DNA of 64,000 bases from Prevotella sp. (lineage in GTDB: Bacteria; Bacteroidota; Bacteroidia; Bacteroidales; Bacteroidaceae), in the NCBI GenBank assembly GCA_017475265.1, contig JAFVFY010000019.1, positions 62,001 to 126,000 on the forward strand. The letters are read 5' to 3'. Each line of letters starts with the position of its first letter. The stretch's first letter is position 1. Below are positions 1 through 62,322 of the stretch, piece after piece. Below the pieces are notes generated by a model, which saw only the letters and a list, made by a program, of their open reading frames with translations, did not search any database and was not told where the DNA came from. The translations under genes and the position numbers were made by a program.

Positions 1-1217
1 CCGTAGGCAGAGAACCCCGTGTTCTTGCTGCTGGCAAAGGCGGTGACCTGTCCTGCCACGGGAACCCTATCATCCGTCATGTTGTCAAGGTCGCTGACGA
101 GATGCATGCCTCCACGATTGTCGAAAAGCAGGGGCTTCTTGTCGCGCCTGCCCGTGCTGACCACACGGAAGTTAAGGTGGCGCGTGCCAATGATTCTATC
201 TGTGGCAATGTCGAGCAGGGCGATGCTGTTCTCGCCGACGATGAGCAGCTGGTTGCCATCATTCATGCTTTCCAAACTAAAGGGGCGGTCAACGCCCTCC
301 AGAAAAATGACGCGGTTGACGGTTTTCCCGTCAACAACCACCAAGTGGCCGGTATGGCTGATGGCGTAGTCTTTGCCGTTCTTCGCAGCAAAGCCGTCGC
401 GGAAGCAATAGTAGTTGTCGCTCATCACCCGCGTGGTATGTAATGCCGAATGGTCAATGGTCAATGCTGAATGGTCAATGGTCAATGCAGAATCGTCCTG
501 CATCCTGTGGGTGAAAATCTCGCCGTAAGTGCTTACCGTCAGCAGATGACCGTCCTTGGGGGAAATCTCCGTGCACGTTATACTTCCGCCATGCACACTC
601 CAGTTGCGCCGGCCACCAGCCGATTGTGTCAAGGCCCGGAACACGGCGGGGATAAAGAGGTCGCCACCGTAGTTGATGGTGTAGAGATAGGAGGCGTAGG
701 CCAGCATATTGCCCAGTTCCGTTTCGCCCGCCTGGTAGATGGAGTACGACTGCGAACCAAGGTTGCGTGCCAGCGAGATATAGTTCAACGTGTCGGCCAC
801 CAGCTTGGCATGTTCGGCCTCCCTGCGCTGCTCTTCAGCTTCCACGCGCTGCTGCTCAGCCATCTGATAGGCAGCCATTGCCTCCTCGGCCGCATCCTCG
901 GCAAGCCCCATTATCTTGATGGCCCTCTGTCGCTCCTTCTCAGAGCGGAGCGTCATCTCCTGAGCAATCTCCGACTGGCGGATGGCTTCCTGGCTGCGCT
1001 CCTCCGAGAGGGTCTGCTGGCCGTATGCCAACTCCTCCATCTGTTTGCTCACACGTCGGTCCACCGCCGACTGTTTCTCATGTTCACGCAGCTCCACAAT
1101 CTGCGACTCCAGCTCGCTGATACGCTCACCATCGCCATGATGCAAGTAAAACCCTGCCACCACCGGCGACAGTAGCAGTACGCCCAAACATATTATTATA
1201 GCACTCTGTCTATTCAC
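1..1217 (-). CDS. Membrane-anchored coiled-coil protein with propeller-like C-terminal region (3' end outside window)
   Basis: This open frame starts at a GTG (1217) and runs off the left edge, giving 405 codons. No in-frame ATG lies near the N-terminus, and an in-frame TGA lies five codons before the GTG. Residues about 5-22 are hydrophobic (IIICLGVLLLSPVVAGFY) and look like a signal anchor. Residues about 30-150 are rich in Glu, Gln, Arg and Ala and predict a long coiled coil. The rest has short segments such as 'SVHGGSITCTEISPKDGHLL' that resemble WD40/propeller blades, so it may be a scaffold or sensor protein; that is inference. A heptamer repeat (443-492) is read in frame as LTIDHSA repeats. 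It lies downstream of rimO on the same strand, separated by another heptamer array. Function not recognised. Confidence 0.65.
   Translation of the reverse strand, partial: MNRQSAIIICLGVLLLSPVVAGFYLHHGDGERISELESQIVELREHEKQSAVDRRVSKQMEELAYGQQTLSEERSQEAIRQSEIAQEMTLRSEKERQRAIKIMGLAEDAAEEAMAAYQMAEQQRVEAEEQRREAEHAKLVADTLNYISLARNLGSQSYSIYQAGETELGNMLAYASYLYTINYGGDLFIPAVFRALTQSAGGRRNWSVHGGSITCTEISPKDGHLLTVSTYGEIFTHRMQDDSALTIDHSALTIDHSALHTTRVMSDNYYCFRDGFAAKNGKDYAISHTGHLVVVDGKTVNRVIFLEGVDRPFSLESMNDGNQLLIVGENSIALLDIATDRIIGTRHLNFRVVSTGRRDKKPLLFDNRGGMHLVSDLDNMTDDRVPVAGQVTAFASSKNTGFSAY
443..492. repeat. Heptamer tandem repeat inside a coding sequence
   Basis: About six consecutive 7-bp units related to ATGGTCA. 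On the minus strand it is translated in frame as two LTIDHSA heptapeptides. Every third unit carries a substitution (CATTCAG or CATTCGG instead of CATTGAC) at the place where TGA would fall in frame. Confidence 0.85.
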
Positions 1218-1229
1218 TTTCTCTTCTAA

Positions 1230-1298
1230 TGTTCAATGCTCAATGTTCAATGCTCAATGTTCAATGTTCAATGGTCAATGCTCAATGGTCAATGGTAA
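1230..1298. repeat. Intergenic heptamer array between rimO and the downstream gene
   Basis: About nine 7-bp units of the form TCAATGN (TTCAATG, CTCAATG, GTCAATG). Read on the minus strand it supplies the last residues of RimO (ITIDH) and its TGA stop codon. Unlike the copies inside genes, it keeps the in-frame TGA. Confidence 0.85.
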
Positions 1299-2703
1299 TA
1301 ACCTCCCCGTAGAGATCAAACTCCTCGGAGTCGGTAATCCTCACATTATATATATTGCCTATGACTGGCATGAAAGTATCGTCCCTTTCACTCCCTTTAA
1401 CTCCCCTTTCACTCCCTTTAACTCCCCATAATGGAATCAACACCTCCGGATCTACTTCAGGTGAGCAGAACTCCGTACGGCCGACGTAGTAGTCGCCCTC
1501 CACGCGGTCGATGATGACGGGCATCACGGTGCCCACCTTTGCAGCCTCAATCTCGGCGCTGATGTTCTGCTGTACGCGCATCAGCTTGTCCAATCGGCGC
1601 TGCTTCACGTCCTCGGGCACATTGTCCTCATAGTGAGTGGCAGACCAAGTACCATCCTCCTCGCTGTAGGCAAAGGCACCGAGACGCTCAAAGCGTGCCC
1701 ATTTCACGAATTCTATCAACTCCTGGAAGTCCTCTTCCGTCTCTCCCGGGAAGCCCACCATCATCGTCGTTCGTAGATGGATGCCTGGCACCTCGCGGCG
1801 CAGACGCTCCACGAACGCCACCGTCTCCTCGTGAGTGATGTTGCGCTTCATGCGAGACAGCACGTTGTCGCTCACATGCTGCAGGGCCACGTCGATGTAT
1901 CGGCAGACGTTCCGTTTCTCGCGCATCACGCGAAGCAGCTCCCAGGGGAAGTTCGTCGGGTAGGCATAGTGCAGACGTATCCACACCACGCCCTCAATGT
2001 CGGCCATCTGCTCTATGAGCTGGGCGATACGCCGCTCACCGTAAAGGTCAAGGCCATAGTACGTCAGCTCCTGAGCTATAATCTGGAACTCCTTCACCCC
2101 ACGCTTTACCAGCCCCCGCACCTCGTCGAGAATCTCCTCCATCGGACGACTGCGGTGATGACCGGTGATAATCGGTATGGCACAGTAGGCACATGAACGG
2201 TCACAGCCCTCACTAATCTTAATGTAGGCGTAGTGGGGAGGGGTAGTAAGCTTCCTTTCCCATTGACCATTAAACATTGAACATTGAGCATTATTGGCTG
2301 CGCGTTCTGAATGGTCAATGGTCAATGGTGAATGGTCAATGGTCAATGGTGAATGGTCAATGTCAGCCGCCAGCTGACGATAGTTGAACTTCCCATACCA
2401 CCCATCGACCTCAGGTATCTCTGCTTCCAGCTCTGCAAGATAACGCTCGGAGAGACAACCCATGACATAGACCCTCTCGACAAGCCCTTCGGCCTTGCGC
2501 TGCACCTGCTCCAGGATGGTATTGATGCTCTCCTCCTTCGCGTCGGCAATGAAGCCGCAAGTGTTCACAACGACGATTTCACCCCTTGGGTCGGGGTCAT
2601 CATGGGTCACATGATAGCCGTGGGCCTCGAAGAGTCCCATCAGCACCTCGCTATCCACGAGGTTCTTTGAACAACCCAGCGATATGAAGTCAATGGTAGT
2701 CAT
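1282..2703 (-). CDS. rimO: Ribosomal protein S12 methylthiotransferase RimO
   Basis: RimO is a radical-SAM enzyme that methylthiolates the conserved Asp of ribosomal protein S12. The N-terminal MTTase domain has its three cluster cysteines at C11, C49 and C83. The radical-SAM CX3CX2C motif is C167, C171 and C174 (CDRSCAYC), and a C-terminal TRAM-like region follows. At 473 residues it is longer than usual (about 430-440), largely because residues about 114-148 are encoded by a heptamer palindrome (2260-2364) sitting between the MTTase and radical-SAM domains. A second small insert (GVKGSER twice, 1378-1428) lies near the C-terminus, and the stop codon lies in a heptamer array. The core catalytic residues are intact, so the enzyme is probably active. 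Confidence 0.95.
   Translation of the reverse strand: MTTIDFISLGCSKNLVDSEVLMGLFEAHGYHVTHDDPDPRGEIVVVNTCGFIADAKEESINTILEQVQRKAEGLVERVYVMGCLSERYLAELEAEIPEVDGWYGKFNYRQLAADIDHSPLTIDHSPLTIDHSERAANNAQCSMFNGQWERKLTTPPHYAYIKISEGCDRSCAYCAIPIITGHHRSRPMEEILDEVRGLVKRGVKEFQIIAQELTYYGLDLYGERRIAQLIEQMADIEGVVWIRLHYAYPTNFPWELLRVMREKRNVCRYIDVALQHVSDNVLSRMKRNITHEETVAFVERLRREVPGIHLRTTMMVGFPGETEEDFQELIEFVKWARFERLGAFAYSEEDGTWSATHYEDNVPEDVKQRRLDKLMRVQQNISAEIEAAKVGTVMPVIIDRVEGDYYVGRTEFCSPEVDPEVLIPLWGVKGSERGVKGSERDDTFMPVIGNIYNVRITDSEEFDLYGEVITIDH
2260..2364. mobile_element. Heptamer-armed palindromic element inserted in frame in rimO
   Basis: The left arm (2262-2291) has units such as CCATTGA and ACATTGA. The loop holds GGCTGCGCGTT. 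The right arm (about 2308-2361) is the inverse complement, made of AATGGTC-type units. On the minus strand it encodes roughly LTIDHSP repeats, then AANNAQCSMFNGQW. Every third unit of the right arm is changed so that no TGA appears in the RimO frame. Confidence 0.8.
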
Positions 2704-43755: not shown

Positions 43756-43902
43756 CTTGTAGTACAAGACCATATCTTTTGTAGTACAAGACCATATCTT
43801 TTGTAGTACAAGACCATAGCTTTTGATGAACAAGACCATAGCTTTTGTAGTACAAAACCATAGCTTTTGTTGAACAAAACCAGTGCTTTTGTTGAACAAA
43901 CC
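43756..43902. repeat. Array of about seven 22-bp palindromic units
   Basis: Units start at 43776, 43798, 43820, 43842, 43864 and 43886, preceded by a partial one. The core is TTGTAGTACAA, perfect in the early units and degraded (TTGTTGAACAAAA) in the later ones. The spacer is ACCATAT or CCATAGC. The flanking sequence 43530-43755 holds no gene I can support. Confidence 0.85.
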
Positions 43903-49318: not shown

Positions 49319-49446
49319 TGGAGTGAAAGGGGAGTGAAAGGGGAGTGAGGAGGGAGTGAAAGGGACAATACATTTTGTGAAGGACGATTAGTAACGTCCC
49401 TTTCACTCCCCTTTCACTACCCTTTCACCCCTCCTTCACTTCCTTT
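49319..49446. mobile_element. Palindromic element with 11-bp repeat arms between murC and ftsQ
   Basis: The left arm (49319-49366) repeats GAGTGAAAGGG-type 11-mers. The right arm (about 49396-49446) is its inverse (CCCTTTCACTC units). About 29 bp lie between. The right arm is translated as the C-terminus of MurC (GSEGGVKG) and contains its stop codon. Confidence 0.8.
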
Positions 49447-60435: not shown

Positions 60436-61506
60436 TTATTTAGCGCAGGCACGTTTGTCACCCATCACTTTCTCCGCCATGCGCAGCTTGGCACTGCGGC
60501 TACGGGGGTTGCGTTGCATCTCATCGTCGGAAGGTGTCACCACCTTATTATTAATAATGTGTAGCGGAGCCGTCACACGTCCGAAGAAATCTTTTTCCGT
60601 TCTCCCCTCGGCGTTGCCGCTGCGCATGACGTTCTTCACCATGCGGTCTTCCAGTGAGTGGTAGGTGATGACTACCAGCCGTCCTCCGGGTCTGAGCAAC
60701 TCCGTGGCCGAGGTAAGCATCTCGCGGAGCACCTCCATCTCACGGTTCACCTCGATGCGCAGGGCCTGAAACAGCTTTGCGCCATCCTTCTTCCATTGAC
60801 CATTGACCATTGACCATTGACCATTGGCCATTGACGATTGACCATTGACCATTGACGATTGACCATTTTTGGCACCCTCGACCTCGGAATGGTCAATGGT
60901 CAATGGTGAATGGTCAATTCCCACAGCCTTTAGCAGTTGTCCTGTGGTCTCTATGCGCTGCTGCTGACGTGCCTTGACGATGGCCTTGGCCAGTTGGCGG
61001 GCGTTGCTCAGCTCGCCGTAGAGTCGGAAGATGTCGGTGAGCTGCTGCTCGTCGTAGTCGTTCACCACGTCGGCGGCTGTCTTGCCTGCGCGACGGTTCA
61101 TCCGCATGTCCAGTGGACTGTCGAAGCGGAAGGAGAACCCACGGCTGGCATCGTCAAAGTGGTGCGATGACACTCCCAGGTCGGCCAGCACCCCGTCCAT
61201 CTGATTCACACCGTAATAGCGCATCCAGTTCCTTATATATCTAAAGTTGCTGCGAATGAAGGTGAATCTATCATCTTGTGCAATATTTTTTTCTGCGTCG
61301 GCATCCTGGTCGAAGGCGTAGAGATGTCCCTCCTTGCCCAGCCGCTTCAGTATCTCCTTCGAGTGACCACCGCCACCGAAAGTCATGTCGGCATAGATGC
61401 CGCCGGGCTGAATTGCCAGCCCGTCGATGCTCTCCTTCAGGAGCACTGGAACATGATAGGCCGTGCTGCCTAACGTGTTCTCCATCCCTTGCACGCAGTT
61501 ACTCAT
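60436..61506 (-). CDS. rsmH: 16S rRNA (cytosine1402-N4)-methyltransferase RsmH (MraW)
   Basis: RsmH methylates N4 of C1402 in the 16S rRNA decoding centre. The roughly 356-residue protein has the start AYHVPVLLKESIDGL, the SAM loop ADMTFGGGGHSKEIL, LADLGVSSHHFDDASRGFSF and the C-terminal VVITYHSLEDRMVKN. Residues about 196-239 are encoded by a heptamer palindrome (60791-60921) placed just before LFQALRIEVN, in a loop that varies among species. The start ATG at 61506 overlaps the mraZ stop; an alternative is 61485 (MENTLGSTAYHV). The motifs needed for catalysis are intact. Confidence 0.94.
   Translation of the reverse strand: MSNCVQGMENTLGSTAYHVPVLLKESIDGLAIQPGGIYADMTFGGGGHSKEILKRLGKEGHLYAFDQDADAEKNIAQDDRFTFIRSNFRYIRNWMRYYGVNQMDGVLADLGVSSHHFDDASRGFSFRFDSPLDMRMNRRAGKTAADVVNDYDEQQLTDIFRLYGELSNARQLAKAIVKARQQQRIETTGQLLKAVGIDHSPLTIDHSEVEGAKNGQSSMVNGQSSMANGQWSMVNGQWKKDGAKLFQALRIEVNREMEVLREMLTSATELLRPGGRLVVITYHSLEDRMVKNVMRSGNAEGRTEKDFFGRVTAPLHIINNKVVTPSDDEMQRNPRSRSAKLRMAEKVMGDKRACAK
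60791..60921. mobile_element. Heptamer-armed palindromic element inserted in frame in rsmH
   Basis: The left arm (60791-60867) has eleven CCATTGA-type units, the loop has about 20 bp, and the right arm (60888-60921) has AATGGTC-type units. On the minus strand it encodes DHSPLTIDHS and later MVNGQSSMANGQWSMVNGQW. The same peptide words appear in RimO. The TGA that the repeat would give in frame is changed to TCA or TCC. Confidence 0.85.
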
Positions 61507-61972
61507 CACTTTGTTCTTTTTTGATACGAGGAACCATCAGCGCCTTGAGTTTCATCGAGAATTCATTCTTCGGGAGGAATGGCTTCTCGAGCTTCTCAGC
61601 GGCCCAAATCTCTATGACGTCGCTAACACCTAAGAACTTCACCGACAGTTTTATTTCTGCCAAATCCAGCAAACGCTTAGGAATCAGGAAACGACCGTTG
61701 GCATCGAGCGTCAGCATCTCGGCCTCCGAAACGAACTGGCGGAACACCATTTCGCTCTCGGTGTCGAAGGCGTTTACATTCGCCTTTATGTCGTCAATGC
61801 GTTTGTTCCATACACTTATCGGATAGAGTACCAGGCAGGGTTCATCGACATGCGCACGCAAAACGAGCATTCCCTCGCTATTTGCCTGCAGTATTTTGCG
61901 GAAAACAGCGGGGAGGAAAGCACGGCCTTTCGTGTCAATCTTGGATTCTATGTTGCCTAGAAATCTCTCCAT
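61499..61972 (-). CDS. mraZ: Transcriptional regulator MraZ
   Basis: MraZ is a DNA-binding protein with two SpoVT/AbrB-like domains that controls the dcw operon by binding repeats in its own promoter. The 157-residue protein has both halves, each with the DxxGRxxxP pattern: DTKGRAFLP (about 13-21) and DANGRFLIPKRL (about 91-102). It is the first gene of the cluster. Its -7 box (TATCTTTGC) lies at 61994-61986 on the minus strand. Its TAA overlaps the rsmH start. Confidence 0.93.
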   Translation of the reverse strand: MERFLGNIESKIDTKGRAFLPAVFRKILQANSEGMLVLRAHVDEPCLVLYPISVWNKRIDDIKANVNAFDTESEMVFRQFVSEAEMLTLDANGRFLIPKRLLDLAEIKLSVKFLGVSDVIEIWAAEKLEKPFLPKNEFSMKLKALMVPRIKKEQSDE

Positions 61973-61994: not shown

Positions 61995-62190
61995 CTAAAA
62001 ATATCCCCCACCACACTGCATTTACTCCCCACTTCGCTGGAAATTTATGGTTTTTTTACACAAATTAAGTCTTTTGGAGGAGGTGCTTACACACTTTTCT
62101 TGTTTTGTGCATGCAATTTTCTAGATTATCACCTTAGTGGTTGAAACCTACCAAACTTATTATTATCATTATCGACGGTTTTGTCTATGA

Positions 62191-62322
62191 GAGAAAACGG
62201 CTTTCTCTGGTAGACAAAACGGCTTTCTCTATAAGACAAAACGGCTTTCTCTATGAGAGAAAACGGCTTTCTCTATGAGAGAAAACGGCTTTCTCTGGTA
62301 GAGAAAACGGCTTTTACTCGCC
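62191..62322. repeat. Array of six 22-bp palindromic units upstream of the dcw cluster
   Basis: Six units of exactly 22 bp. The core is GAGAAAACGGCTTTCTC or the variant with GACAAAA. The arms GAGAAA/TTTCTC are separated by ACGGC. The spacer is CTATGA-like or GGTA. A partial unit precedes it at 62174-62190. The rest of 61995-62366 holds no gene I can support. Confidence 0.85.

What the first reader, a model, noticed from the sequence alone, without database searches (positions are those of the whole stretch)
2260..2364. In-frame heptamer palindromes keep rimO open by altering every third unit
The arm read as CATTGAC repeats would put a TGA in frame every 21 bp. In rimO each third unit reads CATTCAC, giving LTIDHSP repeats instead of a stop. 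The gene at 1-1217 (CATTCAG, CATTCGG) and rsmH show the same change, while the intergenic array at 1230-1298 keeps the TGA and ends RimO. This suggests repeats that insert into, or are filtered for, open reading frames and become protein segments.
Basis: seen in the sequence. Interest (0 to 1): 0.9.

Follow-up and report, generated by a model that had tools for sequence, protein, structure and literature searches.

The report
Palindromic repeats translated inside Prevotella genes
A short hairpin-forming DNA repeat built of seven-base units sits inside many unrelated genes of Prevotella-like rumen bacteria, including two genes in this window, and appears to be read through as extra protein because the one unit in three that would stop translation is changed.

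Summary
RimO carries a 103-bp palindrome (2260-2362): two inverted arrays of the heptamer CATTGAC around a 17-bp core. Every in-frame TGA is TCA, giving IDHSPLTIDHS. Similar palindromes sit in rsmH in this window, in about a dozen other genes of this genome, and in 25 of 398 same-genus genomes (own included).

Of 132 palindromes analysed, 87 lie in open coding frames. At in-frame TGA positions of the 5' arm, TGA is found 0 of 96 times and TCA 77 of 96. Out-of-frame units of the same arms keep TGA (272 of 284), as do 3' arms (393 of 418) and copies not called coding (373 of 419). A held-out set of 26 further palindromes agrees.

At 56 of 60 distinct gene sites the reading phase is the same, which fits spread of a frame-adapted lineage better than repair after insertion. 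RimO of 22 aligned relatives lacks the insert (0 of 22). The repeat usually replaces a variable loop.

The closest known kind is the Rickettsia palindromic element. Arms of tandem heptamers and the 21-bp step appear new. Translation is inferred; how it moves is unknown.

The parts
1282..2703 (-). rimO (ribosomal protein S12 methylthiotransferase), host gene
   Evidence: ORF 473 aa; best match RimO 4jc0 E 2.1e-84; matches in 40 of 40 genomes, own included
2310..2362 (-). 5' arm in gene sense: (CATTGAC)n with each in-frame TGA changed to TCA; encodes IDHSPLTIDHSPLTIDHS
2293..2309 (-). 17-bp core, sense CAGAACGCGCAGCCAAT; related 17-bp cores sit in five other genes of this genome
2260..2292 (-). 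3' arm in gene sense: GTCAATG-type units, stop-free in all frames; encodes NAQCSMFNGQW
   Evidence: the palindrome folds as RNA at -31.8 kcal/mol, z -4.88
1228..1296 (-). heptamer array at the end of rimO that keeps TGA and supplies the RimO stop codon
   Evidence: the other RimO proteins printed have other C-termini
1282..1284 (-). RimO stop codon TGA inside the heptamer array
449..487 (-). single heptamer array inside the gene at 3-1217, stop avoided by CATTCAG and CATTCGG; encodes ALTIDHSALTIDHS
60439..61536 (-). rsmH (MraW methylase family) frame, second palindrome host in the window
   Evidence: Pfam PF01795 E 1e-92
60888..60918 (-). rsmH palindrome, 5' arm in gene sense with CATTCAC
60868..60887 (-). 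rsmH palindrome, 20-bp core
60793..60867 (-). rsmH palindrome, 3' arm in gene sense, extended array
1383..1427 (-). second repeat type inside rimO: a CCCTTTCACTC 11-mer alternating with a 10-mer, so that the period is 21 bp; encodes GVKGSERGVKGSER

Best explanation
This is a dispersed palindromic repeat, mostly 80-130 bp: two inverted arrays of the heptamer CATTGAC around a short core (10-49 bp, most often 17 or 29). It has a lineage adapted to being translated.

Shown from sequence: it lies in open frames inside many unrelated genes, several of them widely conserved, in loops that vary among relatives. The arm that comes first in the sense direction would carry a TGA in frame every 21 bp; each of those is changed, mostly to TCA, while nearly all other units keep TGA. 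The second arm is stop-free in every frame. Nearly all coding copies are read in the same phase, and related cores recur in unrelated genes.

Inferred: copies already carrying the change, and so readable in one orientation and one frame, are the ones that spread within and between genes; selection removes copies that land in a wrong frame. Once inside a gene, arrays grow or shrink by slippage, and steps of three units (21 bp, 7 codons) survive best. The product is a tolerated hydrophilic loop. How the element is copied to new places is unknown; hairpin-templated copying or a single-strand transposase acting in trans are candidates.
For: Stop avoidance is specific to the in-frame units of the sense 5' arm: coding 5' arms in-frame 96 sites, TGA 0, TCA 77; same arms out-of-frame 284 sites, TGA 272, TCA 2; coding 3' arms 418 sites, TGA 393, TCA 0; copies not called coding 419 sites, TGA 373, TCA 7. 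One copy per gene site: TCA 63 of 76. These used 80 of the 109 stretches; the other 29, held out, gave 26 new palindromes, 14 coding: in-frame 13 sites, TCA 12, TGA 0; out-of-frame 41, TGA 40; 3' arms 61, TGA 59; 12 not coding, 109 sites, TGA 94.

One phase: 56 of 60 distinct gene sites, and 13 of 14 held-out copies, are read in the same phase at the arm/core boundary. Core lengths bounded by CATT and AATG are 2 modulo 3 in 30 of 33 coding sites, against 8 of 18 not coding.

Copying: 17-bp cores of one family sit in RimO, NspC, Mfd, GlpK, a WbqC-like gene and an ORF of 1381 aa in this genome. The 29-bp core CTGCTGCGCAAAAGGAGGCGGATGCCAAT is identical in different genes at L122, L246 and L303 and near-identical in others. 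A 32-bp single array is identical at C42:9827, C42:29167 and C59:3093, with different flanks.

Absence in relatives: RimO 0 of 22. A clean 30-bp difference in a peptidase-like gene (C76) against 4 relatives. Of 21 hosts compared, 20 aligned across the site; in 19 no compared relative has a clear CATTGAC-type peptide (one QueA relative has a look-alike TIEHGPLTF), and in rsmH one of two relatives has its own SMVNGQW.

Single arrays with both flanks coding: 33 in the stop-free orientation, 9 in the other (binomial p 2.7e-4).

21-bp step: 5' arms of non-standard length differ by a multiple of three units in 17 of 31 coding cases against 7 of 43 non-coding arms (Fisher p 8.7e-4, on an earlier split of 90 open and 42 not open). 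One gene site shared by two species (L112, L131) has 5' arms of 31 and 10 bp.
Against: Coding status is judged by a home-made hexamer model and an open frame, so zero TGA in frame is partly built into the definition; the weight rests on the controls and on the phase. No protein data exist here.

At most sites the repeat replaces a loop, so exact ends and target duplications could not be defined. In QueA, an FAD-dependent protein and RlmD the core looks, by eye, like host sequence, so arms can also form around native DNA; this does not fit simple copy-and-insert of one unit. 13 of 60 sites recur between loci, so copies are not independent. The 21-bp step has many exceptions (14 of 31 coding 5' arms, 13 of 28 coding 3' arms; arm ends are fuzzy). 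No mobility gene was found.
Confidence: 0.8

Rival explanations
1. Filter only: heptamer arrays arise anywhere by slippage or copying, and the change of TGA to a sense codon arises afterwards, gene by gene, under selection to keep the frame.
For: Single arrays avoid the stop-bearing orientation (33 against 9). Other heptamers whose repeat contains stops show the same 21-bp pattern in open frames, e.g. AACCAAT giving EPITNNR repeats and AAACAAT giving ETINNKR repeats. Nine in-frame sites read TTA rather than TCA.
Against: Post-insertion repair predicts all three phases and a mix of codons; observed are one phase at 56 of 60 sites and TCA at 77 of 96, with cores shared between unrelated genes.
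Confidence: 0.15
2. Foldback or template-switch origin: the palindrome is made in place when a nascent strand folds back on a heptamer array and copies it in inverted orientation, so arms flank native sequence; it is not a mobile unit.
For: In QueA, an FAD-dependent protein and RlmD the core resembles host sequence of relatives and the arms replace the loops on both sides. The coding-palindrome paper on Nematomorpha mitochondria discusses template switching as a source of inverted repeats (PMC6649704, passages seen).
Against: Cores of the 17-bp and 29-bp classes recur in many unrelated genes and species, which in-place origin does not give.
Confidence: 0.25
3. A cellular Y1 (REP-associated or IS200-like) transposase moves the hairpin in trans, as for REP elements.
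For: Y1_Tnp is in this genome (3 matches) and in 20 of the 25 palindrome-bearing genomes against 176 of 373 others (counted by reading the lists).
Against: Five bearers have no match (G136, G229, G339, G345, G411; G229 has 7 pattern matches at 92% completeness). Genome size and completeness confound the comparison. No CATTGAC palindrome lies in the 1.8-3.3 kb held around the three Y1 matches of this genome.
Confidence: 0.12
4. Ordinary ancestral loop or assembly artefact.
For: The RimO linker is variable in length among relatives, and some have other long linkers (L074, L081).
Against: Same repeat in unrelated genes, in separate assemblies of many species; none of the 22 aligned RimO relatives has it.
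Confidence: 0.02

Closest known systems
Rickettsia palindromic elements (RPE); Wolbachia ones known to me here from a title in a reference list
   Same: Hairpin-forming repeat of about 100 bp, in intergenic DNA and in frame inside conserved protein genes, tolerated by a tested protein (PMC2229807, passages seen).
   Different: No sequence comparison was made. Host phylum differs. Arms here are tandem heptamer arrays that change by 21 bp; stop codons are removed unit by unit in one arm only; RPE presence in RNA genes was not tested here.
Other small bacterial repeats with open frames (107-bp Correia element, ERIC/RU-1, YPAL/RU-2, RU-3)
   Same: Reported fused in frame to host genes; the Correia 107-bp form is open and intragenic while the 155-bp form has stops and is almost only intergenic, a split like the one here (PMC2229807, passages and table seen).
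   Different: Not described in those passages as built of tandem units or with unit-by-unit stop removal.
Coding inverted repeats in Nematomorpha mitochondrial genes
   Same: Inverted repeats inside conserved genes, read on both arms (PMC6649704, passages seen).
   Different: There the repeats are perfect, arms encode conserved residues, and they are not presented in those passages as dispersed copies of one element.
REP elements with RAYT (Y1) transposases
   Same: Short dispersed palindromes; Y1 genes occur in this genome.
   Different: REPs are described as 20-40 bp, most GTAG- or CGTC-tagged (PMC3733652, title and abstract start in listing); the link to RAYT is recalled. The ends here are CATTG/CAATG heptamers.
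Heptameric repeats of other bacteria (TAACTGA in Beggiatoaceae; heptameric SSRs in Xanthomonas and Nostoc)
   Same: Seven-base direct repeats in many genomic places (PMC4679880, PMC4692102, titles and abstract starts in listing).
   Different: The first are titled intergenic; neither listing mentions palindromic arms, in-frame copies or stop avoidance.

Membership tests
Rickettsia palindromic element (RPE) | Palindromic repeat of about 105-146 bp forming a long stem-loop | tested here: met
   Roughly: 87 coding copies have median 92 bp, range 51-202, 64 of 87 between 80 and 130; RimO copy folds at -31.8 kcal/mol, z -4.88
Rickettsia palindromic element (RPE) | Copies in frame inside conserved protein genes and also in intergenic DNA | tested here: met
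   87 coding and 45 not called coding of 132; hosts over curated cut-offs include RlmD, QueA, NspC, Mfd, GlpK, RsmH; RimO
Rickettsia palindromic element (RPE) | Sequence homology to a known RPE family | not tested
   No RPE sequence was fetched or compared
Rickettsia palindromic element (RPE) | Host protein shown to be translated and active with the insert | not testable with these tools
   Needs proteomics or enzyme assay
REP element moved by a RAYT (Y1) transposase | GTAG or CGTC tag at the foot of the palindrome | tested here: not met
   By eye only: the palindromes end in CATTG/CAATG heptamers
REP element moved by a RAYT (Y1) transposase | Y1 transposase in bearing genomes, with the repeat next to it | tested here: inconclusive
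   Y1 in 20 of 25 bearing genomes; no CATTGAC palindrome in the DNA held around three Y1 matches here
MITE | Terminal inverted repeats with target-site duplication | tested here: inconclusive
   Clean 30-bp difference seen for one single array; a duplication could not be told at this divergence

The most novel reading that the evidence does not exclude
Prevotella carries a general process that fills variable protein loops with heptamer-array DNA. Many different heptamers take part, with or without palindromic arms and mobile cores. One class has evolved into a reading-frame-adapted element that spreads as translated peptide, so that loop diversification of housekeeping enzymes is continuous and driven by repeats.
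Probability: 0.25. Interest if true: 0.88.

Novelty: new variant of a known kind. Interest (0 to 1): 0.72.

Why it matters
Protein-coding palindromes are best documented in Rickettsia, where reduced intracellular genomes offer an easy explanation (that reason is my own knowledge); in-frame fusions of small repeats are also reported in enterobacteria and Neisseria (PMC2229807, passages). Here they occur in bacteria with draft genomes of about 2.8-4.8 Mb, in conserved genes, in 25 of 398 sampled genomes of one genus. The arms have a built-in ruler: a heptamer shifts frame at every unit, so the position of the stop-avoiding change records the reading frame directly in the DNA. That makes it testable whether mobile DNA can adapt to being protein, and offers many natural loop changes in conserved enzymes. 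Gene annotators should also know that these peptides are repeat-derived.

Tried and rejected
The list of 14-mer hits showed 100 of 135 places; 42 stretches were taken.

DNA search for a close empty site (TolC-like gene, name recalled): apart from its own genome the nearest match was 78% identical, so no exact insertion ends. It showed instead that the same loop holds native sequence, CATTGAC-type palindromes (5 of 29 aligned, L305, L306, L307, L309, L310) or another heptamer palindrome (L308) in different species (29 of 30 loci aligned).

Viral contigs: 0 matches. L200 and L209 look degenerate by eye; none was pursued.

My main counts used 80 of those 109 stretches, because the listing showed 80. 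The other 29 were found while checking this report and analysed as a held-out set.

Structure prediction was not run: by its description it does not list loci from the genome tools as accepted, and a fold without an alignment would be poor. PDB alignment was used instead: the insert falls before the radical SAM part.

An early classification mislabelled at least one coding copy (C56, seen). Four copies counted as not coding (L107:1407, L109, L117, L126) look coding by peptide, so the TCA count there is if anything too high.

Literature: eight searches of an open-licence library; in the listings shown (20 of 109 papers, 15 of 17, all in the others) I saw no report of such elements in Prevotella or Bacteroidota. 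Subscription papers are not covered. PMC186582 is not held. Only passages of PMC2229807 and PMC6649704 were seen.

Full report
What is in the window. rimO (1282-2703, minus) holds a palindrome at 2260-2362. In gene sense it is an array of CATTGAC units, a 17-bp core, then an array of the reverse-complement unit GTCAATG. A (CATTGAC)n array has a TGA in any frame every 21 bp, while (GTCAATG)n has none. In RimO each in-frame TGA of the first arm is TCA, so the segment reads DIDHSPLTIDHSPLTIDHS-ERAANNAQCSMFNGQW. The same holds for rsmH (60793-60918) and for a single array in the gene at 3-1217 (449-487). The array at 1228-1296 keeps TGA and supplies the RimO stop codon. The cysteines of the radical SAM stretch (CDRSCAYC) are present in sequence, and the insert lies before it when aligned to the solved RimO 4jc0.

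Not an ancestral loop. Of 30 RimO loci taken from 40 genomes (own included), 23 were recovered for alignment; apart from the window's own, 0 of 22 have the insert, and the linker varies. One RimO in another species, L128, has its own palindrome in the same linker.

Genome scale. CATTGACCATTGAC occurs 135 times in the 4.75-Mb genome, the reversed control 0 times; CATTCACCATTGAC 22 times. In 699 kb fetched around hits I found 93 CATTGAC-like arrays, merged to 77 elements. 56 of 77 have coding flanks on both sides in one frame, and 55 of those 56 are open through the repeat. Among the single arrays of these, 33 lie in the stop-free orientation and 9 in the other (p 2.7e-4).

Host genes. Matches over curated cut-offs name RlmD, QueA, NspC, Mfd and GlpK, and RsmH, an RNA pseudouridine synthase, an ACR_tran (RND) permease, a WbqC-like protein, an FAD-dependent protein and a protein with APH and RapZ C-terminal domains. 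A citramalate-synthase-like host is below its cut-off. RimO rests. Other gene names used here (peptidase-like C76, TolC-like) are recalled from motifs and come from no family call.

Comparison with five relatives for 21 hosts, one to six relative loci each: 20 aligned across the site. In 19 of them no compared relative has a clear CATTGAC-type peptide (one QueA relative, L166, has a look-alike); in rsmH one of two relatives has its own SMVNGQW; C42:29167 gave no alignment. In 18 of 20 the relatives have other residues in the loop, so the repeat mostly replaces it. In a few the relative has another heptamer-like peptide there (L181, L189, L164). In C76 it is a clean 30-bp addition against four relatives.

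Other species. The palindrome pattern is in 25 of 398 same-genus genomes, own included, with 0 control matches. It is in no viral contig. Pooling the own stretches, 40 fetched loci and 80 of the 109 stretches, and removing duplicates, gave 132 palindromes. A copy was called coding if the frame of a coding upstream flank stays open through it: 87 coding, 45 not.

The central test. In-frame TGA positions of coding 5' arms: 96, TGA 0, TCA 77, TTA 9, others 10. Out-of-frame positions of the same arms: 284, TGA 272, TCA 2. Coding 3' arms: 418, TGA 393, TCA 0. Copies not called coding, both arms: 419, TGA 373, TCA 7. Absence of in-frame TGA is partly definitional; the confinement of TCA to those units is not. 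With one copy per gene site, TCA is 63 of 76. The 29 stretches left out gave 26 new palindromes: 14 coding (in-frame 13 sites, TCA 12, GGA 1; out-of-frame 41, TGA 40; 3' arms 61, TGA 59) and 12 not (109 sites, TGA 94).

Lineage rather than repair. At 56 of 60 distinct sites the reading frame meets the arm/core boundary in the same phase (48 exactly, 8 equivalent with a shifted arm end; exceptions the pseudouridine synthase, QueA, L136 and one with no in-frame site). In the held-out set it is 13 of 14. Core length is 2 modulo 3 in 30 of 33 coding sites bounded by CATT and AATG, and in 8 of 18 copies not coding. Related 17-bp cores sit in six unrelated genes of this genome; the 29-bp core recurs across genes and species. 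Post-insertion repair alone would not give one phase or shared cores.

Length steps. In coding 5' arms of non-standard length, the difference from 32 bp is a multiple of three units in 17 of 31, against 7 of 43 non-coding arms (p 8.7e-4; this used an earlier split of 90 open and 42 not). Coding 3' arms: 15 of 28. So exceptions are many, and arm ends are fuzzy.

Against a simple mobile unit. In RlmD (8 loci at one site), the FAD-dependent protein (3 loci) and QueA the core resembles host sequence by eye and the arms replace loops on both sides. 13 of 60 sites recur in two or more loci, sometimes with different core classes at the same residue (L120 and L143), so some sites are old or repeatedly hit. 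Foldback copying may make or remodel palindromes in place.

Generality. In 1.43 Mb of held sequence there are 581 period-7 arrays of 96 unit types; 302 have coding flanks in one frame, of which 278 are open. This sequence was chosen around CATTGAC hits, so it is not a random sample. Some stop-bearing units other than CATTGAC show the same 21-bp pattern, e.g. seven EPITNNR-type repeats in one frame at C119:13640-13790; others with stops are closed.

Mobility. Y1_Tnp is in 196 of 398 genomes, 20 of 25 bearers; five bearers have none. No CATTGAC palindrome lies in the DNA held around the Y1 matches here. This is inconclusive.

Known kinds. The element works like the Rickettsia palindromic element as reviewed in PMC2229807 (passages), and shares with the Correia repeats a split into open intragenic and stop-bearing intergenic forms. 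It is not filed as a member of either: sequence homology was not tested, and its arms are of another construction.

Noticed in passing
window 1383-1427: A second repeat type in rimO: 11-mer CCCTTTCACTC alternating with a 10-mer so that the period is 21 bp and stays in frame (GVKGSERGVKGSER). Arrays of the same 11-mer at 49320, 49398 and 59882 have an 11-bp period.
   Followed up: partly
G000 C119:13640-13790 (L071:13640-13790): AACCAAT heptamers in a 21-bp repeat, seven copies, open on both strands as EPITNNR and as FPVIGYW.
   Followed up: partly
G000 C105 Mfd ORF (L067:3208-6780), also L118, L233, L237: Another peptide family inside open frames, PTPNPSxxEG with SPLPWGGEGGG; 7 ORF hits in the held set, two of them (L118, L203) the same gene. 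Possibly a second coding palindrome family; its DNA was not examined.
   Followed up: partly
L308 (TolC-like gene): The same loop that holds CATTGAC palindromes in sister species holds another heptamer palindrome here, with peptide NSQFTIDNSQFTIDNS, as if TCA again replaced TGA in AATTGAC units (protein level only).
   Followed up: partly
G000 C11:6713-6801 (L031): A contig ends inside a CATTGAC array, so such arrays probably break short-read assemblies and are undercounted.
   Followed up: no
RGIG3537 loci, e.g. L230, L247, L252, L253, L273: A different core class (about ACCAATACCAGCTGCAATGGGTTTTGC) in palindromes that keep TGA in nearly all units of both arms and were not called coding.
   Followed up: no
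L200, L209, L279, L293: Palindrome-pattern matches in genomes titled Anaerolineales, Acidobacteria (two) and Pyrinomonadaceae; chance, other repeats or transfer was not decided.
   Followed up: no
window 43757-43899 and 62175-62314: Arrays of 22-bp units with about 6.5 copies each, not examined.
   Followed up: no
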